This document shows, in pieces, positions 55,476-64,000 of a stretch of 64,000 bases of DNA. The notes below the pieces were generated by a model. It did not search any database, had not been told where the DNA came from, and worked only from the letters and a program-made list of their open reading frames with translations. The position numbers and the translations under genes were made by a program. The DNA lies in the NCBI GenBank assembly GCA_900318955.1, contig ONMJ01000004.1:1-64000 (forward strand), given 5' to 3'. Origin of the DNA: an uncultured Bacteroidales bacterium. Its GTDB lineage: Bacteria > Bacteroidota > Bacteroidia > Bacteroidales > UBA932. The stretch's first letter is position 1. Every line of letters starts with the position of its first letter.

Positions 55476-58097
55476 TTAGAAGGTGACGTCCACACCGAGA
55501 GAAATGGAGCGCATTATCGGCGTCCCCAGTGCGTCAGAGACCATCTCAGGGTCGATTAGAGGAGCATGCTTCGATAGCGGCGAGAATGTAATAAGATTCT
55601 CCCCGCTCATGTAAAAGCGAAGACTCTCAATTCGAATGTTCTGCGTCATCTCTTTGGGGAAAGTATACGAAACCGACAGGTTCTTAAGACGCAGGTATGC
55701 TGCATTCTGGAGATAGTAGTCGTTTGGAACCCTCAAACCTCCTCCTTTATCAACGGTGGATCCTACTGGTCGTGTCCAATACCCGTCCTTCGTAACCTTC
55801 CAATTATCTGATGAATAATCAACCCCAACAACATCAGTTGCCTGGTCTCGGGTCAGGAATGAAGCAGAGGAGTTGTAATACATGCCCCAGAACATCTGGT
55901 CTGAATCATTCTTTGGCCATGCATATAGAGAGCCGAAATACCAGTCACGATGACATACGCCATTGAACAAGGCGGAGATCCCTATTCCAGACCATGAAAG
56001 GTCTAATCCGATGCCAAAGATATATCTTGGGGTAGAGTTTCCGATTATTGTCAAATCACCATGACTATTAATCTTATATTGTCCTGGACTTATCTCGTCA
56101 TCGCCATTGAGATTCAGGAACTTAAGATTACCGGCATAAGGTCTGAAATTGACGCCGTTAGAATGGAATTGATCTTTCAGCGAGGCCTTTGCCTCTTCAT
56201 TGGAACGGAAATAGCCATCTGTCCTGAAGCCCCAAATTTCCCCCACTGTTGAGCCGGAATAGCTGAGCCCCACAGAATTTTCATTATAGGGAGGAATAAC
56301 GACATCGACATAGGAGAGAGCGTCATACACATTACTGCTCAGACACCATGATAATTGCTTTCCAGCAAGATTGAATGAGTCTCTCAGGCGAAGGGAGAAC
56401 TCCAATCCGTCAATATGTGTGGTATTTAACTTCTTTCGAAAGACATTGCCCGTGAAGGCAACTCTCCCTTCGAGAGCAGAAAGGTCAAGACCTGCTTCTA
56501 TAGTAGGGATTTTCTCAACGGCAGCATGGTCTACGCAAGGACAGGAAAGACTTAAATAATCACTATGAATAGTGAGCCATTTTGTAATATTCAACTGCCC
56601 TGAGACCCCATAAGATATTCCCAGAGCATTGTCTTCAGGGTACAGGCTGCCAGTTTCGCCCCTTATTGAAGAAGAAATTGATAATCGCTTATAGTTGTAT
56701 GTCCCTGAAAGGAAAACACCACTAAGGCTTTGATTCAATGGTTTGTTGGCAGCATAGTCTCCGCCAAGAGTAGCTTCGACCCTATGTCCATCCCCGAAAA
56801 TGGTCGAATAATCCAATCTTGCAGTAGCCCTGTGAGAAGATTCATATAACGTATTTGACAAAGGCTCAGCATTCTCATTAAGAGTCCAACTGGAATTGGG
56901 GTTGAAATGATATGTCACCGGAATTAAACGTCTCTCCAACTTGGATGAGGTATTTGCGTATGCGTAATCTGCATGAAGAGAAAGGCCCTCTAAAAGCTTC
57001 CAATCAAGCCCTGTAATAGTCATAAGGTTCTTCACGGCCTCCGACTCCCCCTGCCCATTCATTATTGGCTGCCAGTTACTTGCAGCAGCGCTCAATGTCA
57101 CCGTACCATCTTCATTGGAAGGAACAAATATCGGTTGGGAATAAGAGTTCATCTTAGAAAGGATAGATGAACCACCTGCGTATGGATGTTTGTTCCCTGT
57201 CGAAAAGAACTTTGTGTCATTGTATATGCAAAGCCCATCCAATACGCGATAAATTATCTTCTGGTGGAAGTCTTTTGAGCCATAACCGAAATCACGATTC
57301 TCATAGATACTACCCAGATTATAAAGCCTCCCGGAGACAGAATACGACAACTTGCCATACTCTGTATTGATTTTCAAGGAATGTGACATTCCCCCGCTGA
57401 TATCCCGATAGAGGAGATCCGGCCACGCAGTAGAGCCAAAATAAAGATACTGCCCATGCGAACCGATTCCATATAAATCATTCGTTCCTGATTCCCTCAT
57501 CTTCTTGAACATATCAAGATATGTAGATCCCGCTACGCTTATTTCACTTGTCGCGACAACCCCGGGGACAGAGACAGCCGCTCCTGGCACCCTAGATCTA
57601 CCGGCATAGAAATCATAATAATTCCGAGTCCATTCGTACCCGTCGGTAACAATCTTATCTTCCAGTTCAATAACCCGCCGTCTGAATGAATAATAGCCAT
57701 TATACGCAACTGAAACACCTTTTTTCGATGGATTCTTAGTTTTTATAAACAATACGCTTCCTTCTCCCTGTGATCCGTAAATCACCGAAGCAGAGGCTTT
57801 TCGAAGAATCTTGACCTCATCCACATCAGCGGGATTGACCTTGTCCAGGGAAGAGATGACTCCGTCTATGATAACAAGAGGTGTTTTCCCCCTGTATTCA
57901 ACAGAGACTCCATCCAGCTCATCTCCGCTTGTCTGAGTGACAATGAGACCTGGGAGCAACCCCTGAAGAGACCTCGCAAGATTCCCATTAGAATGCATTG
58001 AAACATCCTCTCCCTTCACTACATCTGAAGGAAGCTCTTGTGCCTGCACTGTTAATGCTGAAAAAAGGATTAGTAGAATAATGAAACAGTTTCTCAT
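55476..58097 (-). CDS. SusC/RagA-like TonB-dependent outer membrane receptor, orphan
   Basis: The 873-residue protein has a signal peptide (about 1-20), then a plug domain (about 30-120, VVIIDGVISSLDKVNPADVDEVKILRK pattern with the SASVIYGSQGEG motif) and a beta-barrel ending in Phe. SusC proteins import glycans or other large nutrients with a SusD lipoprotein. Here the usual N-terminal carboxypeptidase-like domain of about 90 residues is missing and no susD follows. It starts 13 bases after a broken RHS fragment, so its position may result from rearrangement. Substrate unknown. Confidence 0.9.
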   Translation of the reverse strand: MRNCFIILLILFSALTVQAQELPSDVVKGEDVSMHSNGNLARSLQGLLPGLIVTQTSGDELDGVSVEYRGKTPLVIIDGVISSLDKVNPADVDEVKILRKASASVIYGSQGEGSVLFIKTKNPSKKGVSVAYNGYYSFRRRVIELEDKIVTDGYEWTRNYYDFYAGRSRVPGAAVSVPGVVATSEISVAGSTYLDMFKKMRESGTNDLYGIGSHGQYLYFGSTAWPDLLYRDISGGMSHSLKINTEYGKLSYSVSGRLYNLGSIYENRDFGYGSKDFHQKIIYRVLDGLCIYNDTKFFSTGNKHPYAGGSSILSKMNSYSQPIFVPSNEDGTVTLSAAASNWQPIMNGQGESEAVKNLMTITGLDWKLLEGLSLHADYAYANTSSKLERRLIPVTYHFNPNSSWTLNENAEPLSNTLYESSHRATARLDYSTIFGDGHRVEATLGGDYAANKPLNQSLSGVFLSGTYNYKRLSISSSIRGETGSLYPEDNALGISYGVSGQLNITKWLTIHSDYLSLSCPCVDHAAVEKIPTIEAGLDLSALEGRVAFTGNVFRKKLNTTHIDGLEFSLRLRDSFNLAGKQLSWCLSSNVYDALSYVDVVIPPYNENSVGLSYSGSTVGEIWGFRTDGYFRSNEEAKASLKDQFHSNGVNFRPYAGNLKFLNLNGDDEISPGQYKINSHGDLTIIGNSTPRYIFGIGLDLSWSGIGISALFNGVCHRDWYFGSLYAWPKNDSDQMFWGMYYNSSASFLTRDQATDVVGVDYSSDNWKVTKDGYWTRPVGSTVDKGGGLRVPNDYYLQNAAYLRLKNLSVSYTFPKEMTQNIRIESLRFYMSGENLITFSPLSKHAPLIDPEMVSDALGTPIMRSISLGVDVTF

Positions 58098-58109
58098 AAT
58101 ATAAAACCT

Positions 58110-58198
58110 TACCGACATAAAGATAGTCATTATTTGTCAATGAAGGAGTCCAGGAGGCCATCCTTTCTCCGTATGGATAGTAGCAATTCCGCTGGAGA
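58110..58198 (-). pseudogene. RHS-core fragment C
   Basis: On the minus strand the sequence encodes about 29 residues of an RHS-repeat-associated core: NCYYPYGERMASWTPSL, then TNNDYLYVGK. It lacks a start and breaks off at the YLYxGK point, where in fragment A the core continues with ELHTLF. It follows the 164-residue gene and precedes the SusC-like gene. Confidence 0.72.
58112..58196. repeat. 85-base repeat, copy 1
   Basis: It matches 61179-61263 at 81 of 85 positions, in the same orientation. It corresponds to the RHS-core coding segment on the minus strand. Confidence 0.9.
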
Positions 58199-58213
58199 AC
58201 CTTCTCTATTGAA

Positions 58214-58708
58214 TTATAAATGCTTGACCCACTCGCGAATAGTATCCGGTGGAGCTGTTATCTCAAAGAGAAGTTCATCCCCCCACATAAAAGATTCAAT
58301 GTAGGTTTTTTTCTTCTTATTTATCAATCTCAGGCTTTCAGCCTCATTATAGCGCTTTTGAAACCTAGGCTTCGGAGAATAGCCAGATTGAGTTAATTTT
58401 GCCTTTACAACATCAAATGACACAGAATCTTTATCTGGAACATAAAGGTAATATATAACGACCGTATCGCTATGCAGGCTAACTCTTGAAGTGACGAAAA
58501 AGTGCCCCGCCACAGTAACCGTATCGGGGGGAATATTGTCAAGCCGGAACAATTCTGCAGCTTTTCGCATATCCTTTTGTGATTTTTCCCAACGGATATC
58601 TTCATACAAAGCCTTGAAAGCAGACCTGTTTAAAAAGACCAAGACCGCAAAAGCGATGCAAAGAATTCCCAAGATAGAAAAGAAAAAAAACTTGATTTTG
58701 TGTTTCAT
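58214..58708 (-). CDS. Small membrane-anchored protein, hypothetical; immunity candidate
   Basis: The 164-residue protein has one N-terminal hydrophobic helix (about 5-27), then a soluble domain rich in Lys, Arg and Tyr. I recognise no family. A single-helix anchor on a small domain, next to an RHS fragment in an AT-rich block, fits an immunity protein against a toxin delivered to the cell envelope, but nothing shows this directly. Confidence 0.62.
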   Translation of the reverse strand: MKHKIKFFFFSILGILCIAFAVLVFLNRSAFKALYEDIRWEKSQKDMRKAAELFRLDNIPPDTVTVAGHFFVTSRVSLHSDTVVIYYLYVPDKDSVSFDVVKAKLTQSGYSPKPRFQKRYNEAESLRLINKKKKTYIESFMWGDELLFEITAPPDTIREWVKHL

Positions 58709-58720
58709 AATAACAACTAA

Positions 58721-59419
58721 TTACCATGCTGAAGCCCAAAAGTACAGATACGGGTGTTTCAAGGCCACTCCTGAGGAGTACCCATGTTTCATGCTATCTG
58801 GAGCATACGGGTGCGGTTTGCGATCGGTTCTTAGCAAGCAAGAGTGACCTGATTTCATGATAAAAACAACGGCATCAGGAGGCAGAAAGCACGGTGTTTC
58901 TTTAGAAAAAACGCCTTTAAACTCTAGAGTCAATAATAGTGGGAATCGAGGTAATGCTTCTTTTCCTTCCGTGATGTAGCCAGGGACCGTCTCGTGAGGG
59001 GCATAATCAATCTCTGCAGTAATCCTGAAATAATTGAGGGTATCTCCAGCGAAGAAAGATCTCGAAGACTCTTTGACAGCCTTGTGCTCCCAATAATTCC
59101 ACTCTTCTTCATCATTAACTATATATACCTCTCTCATTATATAGGGGAAGAAAGGTGAGTTCTCTGCGAACCACCGGGCCTGTTCACTATTCTTATATAC
59201 TGCTCTCGTCTTCTCAACCGAAGAAAGATCTATCGTTTCGAATGATTTAGCCTTTGACTGATCATTAATTGGGAAAAAGCTCGTTAGACTATCAGGGAAA
59301 ATTTCACCCTTATATCTCCTCCAATATGATGCAACCTCTGGATTATTCCACTTGAATCCACCAGAGCAACTCACAACAATTGATGTTACAATAAGTAATA
59401 GTACTACTTTTCGAAGCAT
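58721..59419 (-). CDS. Lipoprotein, hypothetical, in the RHS-associated block
   Basis: The 232-residue protein has a lipoprotein signal with lipobox VVSC (Cys18). The frame is open for 21 codons upstream, but only the ATG at 59419 gives the signal. The mature part contains many aromatic residues and a C-terminal HPYAPDSMKHGYSSG stretch. No family recognised. It precedes the 164-residue gene by 12 bases, so they form a pair. Confidence 0.62.
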   Translation of the reverse strand: MLRKVVLLLIVTSIVVSCSGGFKWNNPEVASYWRRYKGEIFPDSLTSFFPINDQSKAKSFETIDLSSVEKTRAVYKNSEQARWFAENSPFFPYIMREVYIVNDEEEWNYWEHKAVKESSRSFFAGDTLNYFRITAEIDYAPHETVPGYITEGKEALPRFPLLLTLEFKGVFSKETPCFLPPDAVVFIMKSGHSCLLRTDRKPHPYAPDSMKHGYSSGVALKHPYLYFWASAW

Positions 59420-59522
59420 AACATTAAAATAGCCTTTTAATAATATCAAGAAGTTGTATACGAGACCATAACCAAGATTCACGTTAAATACTGCGTCTCC
59501 TACATATTCATAATACTTTGTC

Positions 59523-60404
59523 TCATAACAACCTGTTTCCCTTTCTCTTATAACTCTTCATTAATACTCGATTTCGACGCGCTGCCTCAACAATAACTCT
59601 AGATGACCCTTTCATAGCTTTTTTGAAACAGAGGCTCGCGTTATCATAATCATTATTTAAAAAACATGAGATCCCCATTATAAAATTCAGTTCCTGATCA
59701 TTATACTCACGTTCATTCAACGGATCCTCAAGACCTTTTTCCCCTTCAACTATTCGTATCCTTGCTCCAAGACAGCCATAAATAACTAGATCATCCGGAT
59801 AATAAAAGAACTGTTCTGCTTCATATTCAGGAGATCCTCTTTTTTCAATAAAGTATTTCCACAACAAATCTTCCCCTACCGTTTCTTTCTCCAACCGCGA
59901 ATAGCCATAATATTTTGAATTCCCACCACCAACAGCGTCAAAGGATCTGTCTGTAAATATCTCGTTGCCATTGAAATCGATAGCGCCATCCCTGCTGTTA
60001 GAATAATATTCCGAATATCCATCGTGAAAATAGCGCGGAATTGTACTTGCTTGCGGGAAAATATGCCTGATCGTTAAATCAGGCCCTATATATATCCAAA
60101 ATCCTGTCGAATCATATGCGTAATGATCAATATCTTTACCATCTATATCGATATAGCAGAACGCATAGTTAATATTATTATATTCCTTGGGAAGGACAAG
60201 AGGAAAGATAGGCTCTGTGCTTTTAGAAACACCGGTCGTGGTATCTGTAGAAATAATTGAACAATAGTTAGACCACCTTTCTTTCCCTTCGACAGTGATC
60301 CGTTCTCTGTTCCTAATCAAGGTCTGACCAAAAACAGAGAGGGTAAAGAATAAAGAAACTGCGGTTATTGCAACTGTCTGTAAGATATGTTTTTGAATAT
60401 TCAT
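59523..60404 (-). CDS. Exported protein, hypothetical, with helical C terminus
   Basis: The 293-residue protein has a signal peptide (about 1-27), a beta-rich, Tyr- and Asp-rich middle, and a C-terminal stretch of about 50 residues (MGISCFLNNDYDNASLCFKKAMKG) like a tetratricopeptide unit. No family recognised. It lies between the 155- and 232-residue genes in the AT-rich block. Confidence 0.62.
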   Translation of the reverse strand: MNIQKHILQTVAITAVSLFFTLSVFGQTLIRNRERITVEGKERWSNYCSIISTDTTTGVSKSTEPIFPLVLPKEYNNINYAFCYIDIDGKDIDHYAYDSTGFWIYIGPDLTIRHIFPQASTIPRYFHDGYSEYYSNSRDGAIDFNGNEIFTDRSFDAVGGGNSKYYGYSRLEKETVGEDLLWKYFIEKRGSPEYEAEQFFYYPDDLVIYGCLGARIRIVEGEKGLEDPLNEREYNDQELNFIMGISCFLNNDYDNASLCFKKAMKGSSRVIVEAARRNRVLMKSYKRKGNRLL

Positions 60405-60455
60405 GATCTTAACACTGTGAGTCTATTAATTCTCTTAAAAAAATCGTTATTCGCC

Positions 60456-60923
60456 TTAATAGTATCTTTTCCAATGGTATTTGTGACATGCTAATGTGTC
60501 ACCAAATGTTGTTATCAATAAAGAATCAAAATCGATAGTAGGATCAAATTTCTCAACAGCATAATCCTGATCCCCTTTTTTCGATATTAGATAATAATTC
60601 CTTCGTTTCCCATTTTTATTTAACCTTCCTTTCCCTTGCTCTCCGTATGTGATTCCAACTATCTTATCTTCATTCCAATACACTGTAAGAAAATCCTTTT
60701 CGTCGACGACATAGGAATAATAGTGTCCACCAAGTCTTTCCATAAGAAAAACACCATAGCATTCATCAACATATAATAAAGACAAGTTAGTATCATCCAG
60801 TTTATGCTCACTCATTAAGCCATCAATAGCAAGCCATATGAATATTAATAACAATAAAATAACAGGTATCAACAATAGTGATACTATTATCTTCAGTATC
60901 TTTTTTAGTTTACCTTTACCCAT
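60456..60923 (-). CDS. Small membrane-anchored protein directly after a toxin-like RHS tail; immunity candidate
   Basis: The 155-residue protein has a basic N terminus (MGKGKLKKILKI) and one long hydrophobic helix (about 10-33), then a soluble domain with many Tyr and Asp residues. It starts 36 bases after the stop of the RHS tail at 60960. In RHS loci the gene directly after the C-terminal tip normally encodes the matching immunity protein; that is the basis for the proposal, not sequence similarity. Confidence 0.62.
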   Translation of the reverse strand: MGKGKLKKILKIIVSLLLIPVILLLLIFIWLAIDGLMSEHKLDDTNLSLLYVDECYGVFLMERLGGHYYSYVVDEKDFLTVYWNEDKIVGITYGEQGKGRLNKNGKRRNYYLISKKGDQDYAVEKFDPTIDFDSLLITTFGDTLACHKYHWKRYY

Positions 60924-60959
60924 ATATAGAACTGATATGTATTTCCTAAGATTTTCACC

Positions 60960-61174
60960 TCACTCCTCTCTCTGTTTTTTGAATGTTCCTCCTTTGCTAT
61001 TCATAGAGCGATAAGAAAAAGAGCCTATAAACTGTGGTGTTAAAGATGAATGAGTAAAAACATCACGCACTCGCCAATCAAATGAGTCTTCAGAAACACC
61101 ACTTTTCTCTATATCGTCGCTACCATTTTTCCAAATAAACTCATTAGTCTCATCCTTCTGATACCAGTCTCGCC
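60960..61174 (-). pseudogene. RHS C-terminal tip fragment (70 codons), out of frame with fragment B
   Basis: On the minus strand the frame from 61172 to a TGA at 60960 encodes RDWYQKDETNEFIWKNG, then SDDIEKSG and a Ser/Phe-rich end. The DWY..D...G.. opening resembles the start of variable tips in Bacteroidetes RHS proteins. It follows fragment B directly but in a different frame, so it cannot be made as a fusion. Its length suggests a truncated tip. A 155-residue membrane protein gene follows. Confidence 0.5.
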
Positions 61175-61264
61175 CTTTCCGCCATAAAGATAGTCATTAT
61201 TTGTCAATGAAGGAGTCCAGGAGGCCATCCTTTCTCCGTATGGGTAGTAGCGATTACGCTGGAA
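61175..61264 (-). pseudogene. RHS-core fragment B
   Basis: The minus strand encodes 30 residues, FQRNRYYPYGERMASW then TPSLTNNDYLYGGK, of an RHS-repeat-associated core (the YYPxGE and YLYxGK motifs are diagnostic). A TAG precedes it in frame and no start is present. At the AAG of GGK it joins the out-of-frame tip fragment. Confidence 0.78.
61179..61263. repeat. 85-base repeat, copy 2
   Basis: It matches 58112-58196 at 81 of 85 positions. A further 27-base part is shared with the fragment near 62268-62292. Confidence 0.9.
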
Positions 61265-61282
61265 AAACTATTCTTTACAACT

Positions 61283-62086
61283 TTAATTATCACAAGAACT
61301 GTCATTAATCAGATCACTTTTGAACTTGAAAATAAAATAAGGGAAAAACACCACGTACCTGCTTTTGACACGAATTCCCCTGTGAGAAGCAGGAATGAAT
61401 GTTTCTTGCGCTATCTCTTTGCAAATAGTTATAGCGATATTATTTGCCTTCTCATCTTCCGATTTAACAATCAATCTTTCAAAAAAAACAGACCCGTCTC
61501 TTTCAACTATTAGCGACCCTGCGATGGGGATCTTCCCTTGAAGAGGACCTACAGTTGTTTCAGAAAACGCCTCCCGTATCATTTCGAGCAGTCGCGTGTC
61601 GCCACCTATAAACTCGGCAGGGTGTTCAACGGCCAAACTTGAAAACACATAATTATCTGCCCATGAGGCTTCCACTGATCCGAACCCAAACTTGTGAAAA
61701 ATAGAGATTATGTCATCAATACTATCTTCAACATAGTGTTTTCGTGTCAAAAATGGATTCACATTCCCGTCGTTGTCCATCACTATTGACCACGAGTATG
61801 GGTCATCTGGAATAACAGGATCTTTGCCTGACTCACCGCTAAAAAAAACATTTTCTCCTCCCTTCCCCAAAATAGTTATATCTTGAGATGTTCTCTCGCG
61901 ATACGATTCCGACAGGGCATAAATTGATAAATAAGATAGAGTATCGCTTCTGTCGAAAGAAAGGAACAATGTATTCTTCTCTATGCTCTCTGGCATCGAT
62001 TTTATAAATAGATTAATAATCTCCTGACCGAAATCAGAAAGAGATATGCCCAAACATGATAAAACCAATAATAATGAATGTAACAT
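61283..62086 (-). CDS. Exported protein with a TonB C-terminal-like domain, hypothetical
   Basis: The 267-residue protein has a signal peptide (about 1-19). The last 75 residues (GSLIVERDGSVFFERLIVKS, ending VKSRYVVFFPYFIF) follow the beta-strand pattern of TonB C-terminal domains. The rest is unrecognised. The ATG at 62086 gives the signal peptide; upstream codons overlap the end of RHS fragment A. It is the gene between fragments A and B. Confidence 0.6.
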   Translation of the reverse strand: MLHSLLLVLSCLGISLSDFGQEIINLFIKSMPESIEKNTLFLSFDRSDTLSYLSIYALSESYRERTSQDITILGKGGENVFFSGESGKDPVIPDDPYSWSIVMDNDGNVNPFLTRKHYVEDSIDDIISIFHKFGFGSVEASWADNYVFSSLAVEHPAEFIGGDTRLLEMIREAFSETTVGPLQGKIPIAGSLIVERDGSVFFERLIVKSEDEKANNIAITICKEIAQETFIPASHRGIRVKSRYVVFFPYFIFKFKSDLINDSSCDN

Positions 62087-62093
62087 ACACAAT

Positions 62094-62291
62094 TTATCTA
62101 ATAAAATAATGTATTCCAAAGTATACGGCCAGGTAGTATTTCATCTTGAGTAAGACGGAGTAGTATTTTTCACACAAAGGATCCATGCTTGTAAATATGC
62201 CGTCGGTGGTCTGATATCGCGCTCCGTTGTCGTAAAAGGGAAGGGAGAACAGCGTGTGGAGTTCCTTTCCGCCATAAAGGTAATCATTATT
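62094..62291 (-). pseudogene. RHS-core fragment A
   Basis: The minus-strand frame from 62291 encodes NNDYLYGGKELHTLFSLPFY, then DNGARYQTTDGIFTSMDPLCEKYYS, the downstream half of the RHS-repeat-associated core (YDxGARxY...FTxxDPLxEKYY). RHS similarity ends near 62157. The frame stays open to a TAA at 62094. It begins one base into the stop codon of the upstream 421-residue gene and lacks a start codon, so it is a displaced core segment. Confidence 0.82.
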
Positions 62292-63556
62292 TATTCCAAA
62301 CTCTTGATAATATCATCCGGAGTACTATTAATCTCACTGAGGTCGCAACCGGACAAAATGACCTTTAACATCTTTAGAGCCTTTTGTTTAGAACGAGAGC
62401 GAATACGTACATACTCTATTAATCCTTCATCTGTCTTTTGACCACAGATGCTGAACTCTTTATCCCAATAATTATAATAAGGGTACCAAATCCTTCGATA
62501 ATCATATGGATTTCTTTCAAGGGTCACCTCTTCTGTTCTTTTGACGCACATGACTTTGATAGGTTGCGTAGAAGAACAATAGTAGAATTTATCATCGGGA
62601 TAATATTGAGTTCTTACAAGTATCTCATCTCTACCGTGATATGAGAATCTGCGATCTCCAAGATCATAATCTGCCGCAGTATAATTGGACGGAATATAAA
62701 ACCTGTTTTTTACTCTTTGAGGATAACCCAACAGGTATTTAAGGCTATCTGTTACCCTGTCTTGTATTCTTTCATCAATGGCGATGATCTTATTATTAAT
62801 TTCTGTCTTAGTAAAATAGAACTCGTCTTTCTCTTTCATTAAAGGGATATCACCTGACTCCTTAAGACTTAGCCACTGAGAGATTGCATGTTTCGAAGCA
62901 TCGCAACCCGACATTATCTTATCCAGATACTTTATAGCATTATCGTTCCGCTTCGCTTTAATGTAAATATCGGCGTAATCCCCGTCTAAAACCAACAACC
63001 TATATCCTGTCGGGAATGAACGTAATAATCTATCATTATGAAGATAATTATAATAATCCTTATCTTCTTGATCTCCTACTCGTATCTCTGTCACCTTGAT
63101 GGTTCGAATTGTGTCTTGAACCTCAAAATTAGGATGATGTTGATGAGGGGATGATATGATTATTTCATCTCCTTTTCCTAATATAAACATGCGATTCCGT
63201 CGATTAGTCCACGGACCATAATAAACAACACCATCGAAGGTCTTTGGGAGATGTACTTGAATCTTTGGCCAATAATCTGACATAAATTCATGTAACTGAT
63301 AATCTTTACCCTCTACTCCTTCCTTAAAAACGATACCGTCATTTGTAGTTATGATATAATAGCAAAACCAGGGGTATCGGACAGTCTTTCCTTCGACATG
63401 TGGAAGATAATACTTAACTGTAGAATCGTTTATTTGTGTTATGCGTACCTTCTCCCGATTATCACGAAATGAAGTGCTCTTGGCTGAAACCAGAACAAGA
63501 GATACAACAATAATGACAATCAGATATAAACTCCACCTTTTCTTATTCTGCCTCAT
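62291..63556 (-). CDS. Membrane-anchored protein with an internal duplication, hypothetical
   Basis: The 421-residue protein has one N-terminal hydrophobic helix (about 9-28) and two repeats of about 120 residues. Each repeat ends with a similar helical segment: KYLDKIMSGCDASKH near residue 220 and KMLKVILSGCDLSEI near 405. The ATG at 63556 is preferred over one at 63604 because it starts directly before the helix. No family recognised. It ends at RHS fragment A. Confidence 0.65.
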   Translation of the reverse strand: MRQNKKRWSLYLIVIIVVSLVLVSAKSTSFRDNREKVRITQINDSTVKYYLPHVEGKTVRYPWFCYYIITTNDGIVFKEGVEGKDYQLHEFMSDYWPKIQVHLPKTFDGVVYYGPWTNRRNRMFILGKGDEIIISSPHQHHPNFEVQDTIRTIKVTEIRVGDQEDKDYYNYLHNDRLLRSFPTGYRLLVLDGDYADIYIKAKRNDNAIKYLDKIMSGCDASKHAISQWLSLKESGDIPLMKEKDEFYFTKTEINNKIIAIDERIQDRVTDSLKYLLGYPQRVKNRFYIPSNYTAADYDLGDRRFSYHGRDEILVRTQYYPDDKFYYCSSTQPIKVMCVKRTEEVTLERNPYDYRRIWYPYYNYWDKEFSICGQKTDEGLIEYVRIRSRSKQKALKMLKVILSGCDLSEINSTPDDIIKSLE

Positions 63557-63564
63557 AAAGAAAA

Positions 63565-63742
63565 TCATTGATGATTTGCATAATATAATCCCATGAGCTT
63601 GCATAAATGCTTCACTAACAACACCGAAATCTTTCCTGACAATCCTTCCTTCCTCATGAGCATTGTTCTGGCGTAATCATACTCAAAGTCCTTGAAACCA
63701 GAGTTGTTTTGTCTTTCCCTGAATACTAATGGAAGAGAGATT
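63565..63742 (-). other. Possible fragment of a coding sequence
   Basis: The minus strand is open for about 55 codons and reads protein-like (GFKDFEYDYARTMLMRKEG), but no start codon in a good context is seen and it overlaps the 5' end of the next gene. It may be a decayed tip or nothing. Confidence 0.2.
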
Positions 63743-63744
63743 AT

Positions 63745-64000
63745 TTATTCTCTGACATTAAGAACGGGGTCAATACTAATGATTCTTTGTAATACATATA
63801 TAACCTTGGCCTCATCATGCCAATCAAACAAATCAGCCATGATTAATTGCTTGAGAGGCTCTTCAATCTGATCTACCTGTATTCGAATAAACTCTCCTCT
63901 AATCTTAATTATTTGATAAAGATATGGCGAACAATCTTGAAAATTGAGAAAAGGGCTTTCGACTCTATATAATTCCCTTCGCATATTATCCCTATGTTCT
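63745..64000 (-). CDS. Unidentified protein, 5' part beyond the window
   Basis: The minus-strand frame is open to the window edge; the visible part has about 84 residues and ends DPVLNVRE. An ATG at 63984 is the first start inside the window, but the frame continues above it, so the gene may begin outside. Composition (Ile, Leu, Asp, Glu rich, no hydrophobic helix) suggests a soluble protein. No family recognised. Confidence 0.45.
   Translation of the reverse strand, partial: EHRDNMRRELYRVESPFLNFQDCSPYLYQIIKIRGEFIRIQVDQIEEPLKQLIMADLFDWHDEAKVIYVLQRIISIDPVLNVRE

What the first reader, a model, noticed from the sequence alone, without database searches (positions are those of the whole stretch)
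58110..64000. Array of displaced RHS tips with candidate immunity genes
Three broken RHS-core pieces lie on the minus strand between unrecognised secreted or membrane-anchored genes, all in one orientation and in a visibly AT-richer block. Fragments B and C cover YYPYGE to YLYxGK; fragment A covers YLYGGK to DPLCEKYYS, so together they rebuild a core end. In RHS systems (Jackson, Koskiniemi and colleagues) orphan tips with immunity genes accumulate downstream of an rhs gene and serve as a reservoir for tip switching. The seven genes here may be immunity or effector genes without described families.
Basis: partly seen in the sequence, partly recalled or inferred. Interest (0 to 1): 0.8.

Follow-up and report, generated by a model that had tools for sequence, protein, structure and literature searches.

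The report
Immunity genes left by dead toxins
A Bacteroidales bacterium carries a short stretch of DNA where broken leftovers of toxins used between bacteria sit among intact genes that probably protect against such toxins; the arrangement is of a known kind, but the protective genes match no named family.

Summary
The window is part of contig C38 (96,174 b) of a 2.4 Mb draft genome. An AT-rich block, 58107-64308, holds three minus-strand RHS-core pieces, confirmed by a profile built without this contig (46.0, 24.5, 23.0 bits), and seven co-oriented genes, the last crossing the window edge. None of the three cores leads into a usable tip. Behind fragment B lie three collinear, frame-broken pieces of a tip that is intact in a same-genus relative; there, as here, a related small membrane-protein gene starts inside the tip's end. 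So the toxin is dead and its presumed immunity gene is open. Four of the seven families have a relative directly behind an RHS tip elsewhere, one of them behind a full-length rhs gene with a Toxin-JAB1 tip. A fifth has its relative in another tip array of this genome; for two none was found. The contig holds no rhs gene. A related species lacks the block at the matching site. Best reading: a relic of RHS tip displacement that serves, if anything, as an orphan-immunity bank, and not as a reservoir of usable tips. The kind is known; the immunity families are undescribed and mostly look exported.

The parts
58107..58202 (-). Core fragment C, 3'-truncated, ends 9 b before the likely start (58097) of the SusC-like gene
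   Evidence: core profile 23.0 bits; 92.7% identical to B
58214..58708 (-). Gene of 164 aa with N-terminal hydrophobic segment; candidate immunity gene by position only
   Evidence: no family; no relative in 60 RHS loci; not searched further
58721..59482 (-). Candidate immunity gene (253 aa, or 232 aa from ATG 59419), lipoprotein-like N-terminus
   Evidence: two tandem relatives behind a short RHS tip in L036
59523..60404 (-). Candidate immunity gene, 293 aa, signal-peptide-like N-terminus
   Evidence: only other match in 300 genus genomes starts 38 b behind an RHS core/tip piece in G321
60456..60923 (-). Candidate immunity gene of the dead tip, 155 aa, N-terminal membrane segment
   Evidence: 27% identical relative overlaps the end of the intact tip in L033; same place here
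60914..61175 (-). Decayed RHS tip: three collinear pieces (61175-61107, 61076-60981, 60967-60914); first two in one frame that differs from the core of B, third in another; the middle of the tip is missing
   Evidence: tblastn of the L033 tip, E 0.006 for the first piece and 3e-10 for the other two; best piece 43.9 bits against at most 26.6 in 300 shuffles
61174..61269 (-). Core fragment B, joined out of frame to the tip remnant
   Evidence: core profile 24.5 bits; frames
61283..62119 (-). Candidate immunity gene, 278 aa as listed, exported-looking
   Evidence: relative directly behind a full-length rhs gene with Toxin-JAB1 tip in L115; second gene behind a Toxin-JAB1 tip in L116
62133..62292 (-). 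Core fragment A, from the 29 b piece to DPLCEKYYS, no tip behind it
   Evidence: core profile 46.0 bits
62291..63604 (-). Gene of 437 aa, membrane-anchored-looking; candidate immunity gene
   Evidence: 46% identical relative is third gene behind the C58 tip of the same genome; no other in 300 genus genomes
63745..64000 (-). Gene of 187 aa (64308-63745, crosses the window edge), signal-peptide-like start; candidate by position only
   Evidence: no relative in 280 genus genomes

Best explanation
The block is what is left of an RHS (polymorphic toxin) tip array. Cassettes of core end + C-terminal toxin + immunity gene came in by recombination in the RHS core; the toxin parts were later deleted or broken, and the immunity genes stayed open. 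Shown: three core scars; one cassette with a decayed tip and an open immunity gene of the same pairing as in an intact relative; tip-linked relatives for three further genes and an array-linked relative for a fourth; absence of the block at the matching site of one related species. Inferred: that the genes are expressed; that the exported or membrane-anchored proteins neutralise RHS toxins of neighbouring cells at or outside the inner membrane; that this protection is why they stayed open; that the direct repeat B...C records integration of a circular tip cassette.
For: Core profile without C38: 46.0, 24.5, 23.0 bits. Decayed tip in three collinear pieces, E 3e-10 for two and 0.006 for the third, 43.9 bits against at most 26.6 in 300 shuffles. 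Relatives of 60456, 58721, 59523 and 61283 start between 19 b before and 68 b after an RHS tip end (loci); Toxin-JAB1 in two of the tips. Relative of 62291 in the C58 array. Six open ORFs of 150 aa or more against at most one in 200 shuffles. Tip plus immunity stretches in relatives are AT-rich too: mean 38.9% G+C (98 stretches) against 50.9% for 80 whole loci. Matching site in G089 lacks the block.
Against: 63745 (280 genomes) and 58214 (60 loci only) have no known relative. Four of seven other 61283 matches (L111, L112, L114, L117) show no RHS core in the stretch held. The weak further matches of 58721 (G215, G147) and 60456 (G013, G025) show none either. 19 of 31 ordinary window genes also hit the 60 RHS loci, though in the rows printed none nearer than 263 b to a core-bearing frame. 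The searches that found the relatives of 58721 and 60456 were made inside RHS loci. Expression and selection were not tested; with no close strains, dN/dS could not be computed.
Confidence: 0.75

Rival explanations
1. A graveyard: the immunity genes have lost their use with their toxins and are simply younger or slower to decay than the tips.
For: All three cores and the one traceable tip are broken. No rhs gene on the contig. Orphaned Rhs immunity genes of a bee symbiont gain stops (Steele et al. 2017, passages).
Against: Seven long frames are open while the tip between them is broken.
Confidence: 0.17
2. A live tip reservoir for switching onto an rhs gene elsewhere in the genome.
For: RHS core pieces that could give homology; other tips in the genome.
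Against: 0 of 3 cores lead into a usable tip. No close DNA copy of B elsewhere in the genome. No rhs gene on C38.
Confidence: 0.03
3. A cassette system with its own recombination site: the 29 b core piece, which lies at a junction in all three fragments, is where blocks are exchanged, as in a recombinase-associated defence array.
For: A starts and B and C end at the 29 b piece; the genes are co-oriented.
Against: By eye no recombinase gene among the ORFs listed from 54.8 to 78 kb. Core copies in relatives' arrays start at varied points. The B junction joins two similar short motifs, as an ordinary deletion can (by eye).
Confidence: 0.03
4. The seven genes are unrelated exported cargo of a foreign AT-rich island that happened to land among RHS scars.
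For: None matches a known immunity family; two have no relative.
Against: Four families recur directly behind RHS tips in other genomes, and 60456 stands behind the remnant of the same tip as its relative.
Confidence: 0.02

Closest known systems
Rhs arrays of displaced tips (Jackson et al. 2009, PMC2935791, abstract and outline seen; Steele et al. 2017, PMC5727410, passages seen)
   Same: pieces of core in one orientation, each followed by tip or immunity genes; orphaned immunity with a broken toxin is described
   Different: no full-length rhs gene at the head of the array on this contig, no usable tip at all; the immunity families differ
Heterogeneous polyimmunity loci (Zhang et al. 2012, PMC3482391, passages seen)
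   Same: several unrelated candidate immunity genes in tandem without a toxin gene; known from Bacteroidetes
   Different: RHS-core scars still mark the joins; the proteins match no Pfam family and look exported, whereas that paper calls nearly all its immunity proteins cytoplasmic
Immunity-gene arrays by effector displacement in Vibrio cholerae T6SS clusters (Kirchberger et al. 2017, PMC5361080, abstract and section 13 seen)
   Same: old immunity genes stay behind after the effector is displaced, with effector remnants
   Different: RHS cores instead of T6SS effector genes; most full-length rhs proteins of the genus start with a hydrophobic, signal-like segment (21 of 25)
rAID orphan-immunity systems of Bacteroidales (Azhieh et al. 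2025, PMC12247911, passages seen)
   Same: co-oriented orphan immunity genes in Bacteroidales
   Different: no tyrosine recombinase seen; RHS-core pieces at three joins; no T6SS link shown
Tox-JAB-1 with Imm65 (Zhang et al. 2012, passages seen)
   Same: relatives of 61283 stand behind Toxin-JAB1 tips on RHS proteins of Bacteroidales and look exported
   Different: no Pfam match to an immunity family for 61283 or its relatives; kinship with Imm65 not tested

Membership tests
Rhs displaced-tip array | pieces of RHS core, all in one orientation | tested here: met
   three pieces, minus strand
Rhs displaced-tip array | core pieces continue in frame into C-terminal tips | tested here: not met
   0 of 3; one decayed, out-of-frame tip remnant behind B
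Rhs displaced-tip array | full-length rhs gene at the head of the array | tested here: not met
   none on the whole of C38; rest of the draft genome not searched for the N-terminal part
Rhs displaced-tip array | immunity gene behind each tip | tested here: met
   by kinship: 60456 behind the tip remnant; relatives of 58721, 59523 and 61283 directly behind tips elsewhere
Heterogeneous polyimmunity locus | four or more unrelated immunity genes in tandem | tested here: inconclusive
   seven genes in tandem without mutual similarity; five linked to RHS tips or arrays by kinship, none shown to give immunity
Heterogeneous polyimmunity locus | no associated toxin gene | tested here: met
   only broken tip and core pieces
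Heterogeneous polyimmunity locus | members of described Imm families | tested here: not met
   no Pfam, NCBIfam or PADLOC family for the seven above cut-off
rAID | tyrosine recombinase gene beside the array | tested here: inconclusive
   none seen by eye among listed ORFs from 54.8 to 78 kb; most of these ORFs were not scanned against a library
rAID | conserved motif between the genes | tested here: inconclusive
   the strongest repeat is the RHS core piece, at three of the gaps; not compared with the rAID motif
Imm65 (partner of Tox-JAB-1), for 61283 | sequence kinship with Imm65 | not tested
   no Imm65 profile or member was compared; Pfam lists none for 61283 or its relatives

The most novel reading that the evidence does not exclude
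In this genus most RHS toxins carry a Sec-type signal and most of their immunity proteins are exported or membrane-anchored too, so protection acts outside the cytoplasm. The island is then a toxin-free bank of such outer immunity proteins, of families not yet described, kept by selection after its own toxins died.
Probability: 0.35. Interest if true: 0.6.

Novelty: new member of a known kind. Interest (0 to 1): 0.38.

Why it matters
It is a clear snapshot of toxin cassettes decaying while protection stays. It points to at least four undescribed candidate immunity families, two of them with a likely partner (an unnamed tip for 60456, Toxin-JAB1 for 61283) that can be tested directly. If the exported character of the immunity proteins holds up, it tells where RHS toxins of these bacteria act.

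Tried and rejected
A fixed recombination site at the 29 b piece was considered and rejected: core copies in relatives' arrays start at varied points.

Led nowhere: Pfam, NCBIfam and PADLOC gave nothing above cut-off for the seven genes. Rfam gave nothing in 55-64 kb. DNA of fragment B in 61 genomes (own included) found only own copies and one 24 b match in G013. A genome-contig scan with 62291 found no relative. A scan with two relatives of 61283 found only the two contigs already known. Structure models of 62291 alone and of 61283 (three rows) were poor, mean pLDDT 35.4 and 46.9; only residues of about 191-230 of the second average above 70 per block of ten. I ran no fold search on them. PF05593 has no match in the own genome, which says little, since the full-length rhs protein of L115 scores below that family's cut-off too.
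Full report
What the window is. It is bases 1-64000 of contig C38 (96,174 b) of an unnamed 2,401,913 b draft genome in 67 contigs. One same-genus relative used below (G188) has contigs of the same lengths (60,101 and 21,793 b) as two contigs of 'uncultured Prevotellaceae bacterium isolate hRUG909', one of them with an identical gene. That the genus is probably Cryptobacteroides, and that such isolate names mean rumen assemblies, is recalled and untested. Names such as exbD, asnS, udk and tonB below are read by eye from the sequences.

Observation. The block 58107-64308 is AT-rich (34-40% G+C per kb from 59001 to 65000, 47-50% from 66001 to 78000). It lies between a SusC-like gene (55476-58130, likely start 58097) and a TPR-type regulator gene (64766-66586). 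It holds seven minus-strand genes of 155-437 aa and three RHS-core pieces. A core profile made from same-genus loci and three other own contigs, C38 left out, scores A 46.0, B 24.5 and C 23.0 bits. All of C38 holds no other piece, and the first 900 residues of the L115 rhs protein find nothing on C38 or on the other own stretches held. The curated model TIGR03696 is too weak for such pieces: A 14.1 bits, below its cut-off of 32.5, and B not listed. It finds three other places in the genome: C55, C34 and C58.

The dead toxin. In L033 (G119:C13) an RHS core leads in frame into a tip, and a 151 aa membrane-protein gene starts inside the last bases of that tip. Behind window fragment B, three stretches match this tip in order: residues 1-23 (E 0.006), 133-164 and 188-205 (E 3e-10 together). 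The best piece scores 43.9 bits and the other two 28.9 each; the best hit in 300 shuffled blocks is 26.6. The first two pieces share a frame that differs from the core of B, the third lies in another frame, and the middle of the tip is missing. The window gene 60456-60923 is the relative of the L033 gene (27% identity) and starts inside the third piece. So the toxin is broken while its presumed immunity gene is open.

The other genes. 58721: two tandem relatives in L036 (G107; tblastn E 2e-5 and 0.005), the first starting 68 b behind a short RHS tip. 59523: the only other match in 300 genus genomes (E 3.6e-5) starts 38 b behind an RHS core/tip piece in G321. 61283: seven other matches in five of 280 genomes. 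In L115 one starts a few bases behind a 1162 aa rhs gene with DUF6443 and a Toxin-JAB1 tip. In L116 one is the second gene behind a Toxin-JAB1 tip. In L113 one overlaps an ORF at a contig end that resembles the L115 tip by eye but has no Pfam match. Four (L111, L112, L114, L117) show no RHS core in the stretch held. 62291: its only relative in 300 genomes is 46% identical and is the third gene behind the C58 tip of the same genome. 63745: none in 280 genomes. 58214: none in 60 RHS loci, not searched further. Genome-wide searches with alignments for 58721 and 60456 gave, besides the RHS-linked loci, only weak matches in G215, G147, G013 and G025, with no RHS core in the stretches held.

Control on linkage. 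A hit inside an RHS locus is not evidence by itself: 19 of 31 ordinary window genes of 140-450 aa also hit the 60 loci at E 1e-3. In the rows printed for them (at most two a gene) the nearest lies 263 b from a core-bearing frame, whereas the four relatives named above start between 19 b before and 68 b after a tip end. The relatives of 58721 and 60456 were first found inside RHS loci and are therefore biased; the searches for 59523 and 61283 were genome-wide from the start.

Site. In G089 the genes exbD, exbD, asnS, udk and tonB are collinear (76-80% identity for the first four, 51% for tonB) with no such block. In the window asnS-udk-tonB are turned round against exbD, and the regulator, the block and the SusC-like gene follow tonB. 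The site is thus variable, though an inversion complicates the comparison. G089 has an RHS array of its own about 10 kb away, between two genes that are neighbours in the window.

RHS in the genus. TIGR03696 matches in 59 of 151 genus genomes, the own one included. I fetched 82 regions of relatives, chosen for RHS matches, for relatives of the seven genes, or as neighbours of one of these. Of 122 core matches outside C38 (E below 1e-3), 112 lie away from sequence ends; 103 of these reach the end of the core, 84 with a tip of 140 aa or more; 8 stop early, two of them being frame-broken cores whose end matches in another frame. DNA shared between core copies within one locus ranges from 19 to 707 b, often 130-260 b, with varied 5' ends (only 450 b upstream were compared). 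This fits homologous recombination in the core without a fixed site. Jackson et al. 2009 propose recombination with circular intermediates (abstract); B and C as direct repeats round a four-gene block would fit that, but this is inference.

Export. By a simple hydropathy test, 79 of 103 genes directly behind RHS tips (own genome included) have a hydrophobic N-terminal segment, against 100 of 239 genes more than 3 kb from a core (Fisher p 2e-9) and 21 of 48 other window genes. The test is lenient, as that background shows. Six island genes score 2.1 or more; the seventh, 63745, was judged by eye. Of 25 core-bearing ORFs over 900 aa, 21 pass, and two of the four others lie just under the threshold. 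Zhang et al. 2012 call all but few of their immunity proteins cytoplasmic, with Imm65, partner of Tox-JAB-1, the one lipoprotein (passages). 61283 may be a local counterpart of Imm65; this was not tested.

Literature. Displacement that leaves immunity genes behind is published for Vibrio T6SS clusters (Kirchberger et al. 2017, abstract and section 13), orphaned Rhs immunity with a pseudogenised toxin for a bee symbiont (Steele et al. 2017, passages), and orphan-immunity arrays for gut Bacteroidales (Azhieh et al. 2025, passages). So the kind is known. On these immunity families I saw nothing in the titles and opening abstract lines of three listings (15 of 46, 12 of 33 and 12 of 12 papers shown); Cryptobacteroides with Rhs gave no paper.

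Verdict. A real, RHS-derived orphan-immunity block with dead tips. As a kind it is known; the interest lies in the undescribed families, in the one clear dead-toxin and open-immunity pair, and in the exported character of the immunity proteins.

Noticed in passing
L004:6766-8586 (C38 64766-66586) and L007:7953-9578 (C58): Both RHS-derived arrays of this genome lie directly behind a TPR-type regulator gene of one family (25% identity to each other). In relatives 5 of 7 loci with such a gene have it within 0.8 kb of a core-bearing frame, while about 16% of the bases fetched lie within 1 kb of one.
   Followed up: partly
L007:417-7729 (C58): A second array in the same genome: a short RHS tip (86 aa behind the core) followed by seven minus-strand genes, none with a Pfam match above cut-off.
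   Followed up: partly
L006:8476-11150 (C34): A third RHS tip with a frame-broken core and an AHH-nuclease-type end (Pfam E 4e-6), followed by two tandem genes 64% identical over 73 residues; a transposase-like reading frame lies upstream by eye.
   Followed up: partly
L005:2-841 (C55): Contig C55 begins inside an RHS core whose tip looks like a zinc metallopeptidase (Reprolysin-type, E 2e-6); the contig end may hide a longer rhs gene.
   Followed up: partly
window 55476-58130: The SusC-like gene beside fragment C is short (about 870-880 aa against frames of mostly 1,000-1,300 aa for its relatives) and its likely start lies 9 b from the core scar.
   Followed up: no
window 62291-63604: The 437 aa protein has a short internal repeat (23 residues, 39% identity) between its two halves.
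   Followed up: no
L049:3937-10975 (G089): A related species has an RHS array inserted between two genes that are neighbours in this window (49865 and 49950), near the same exbD-type cluster.
   Followed up: partly
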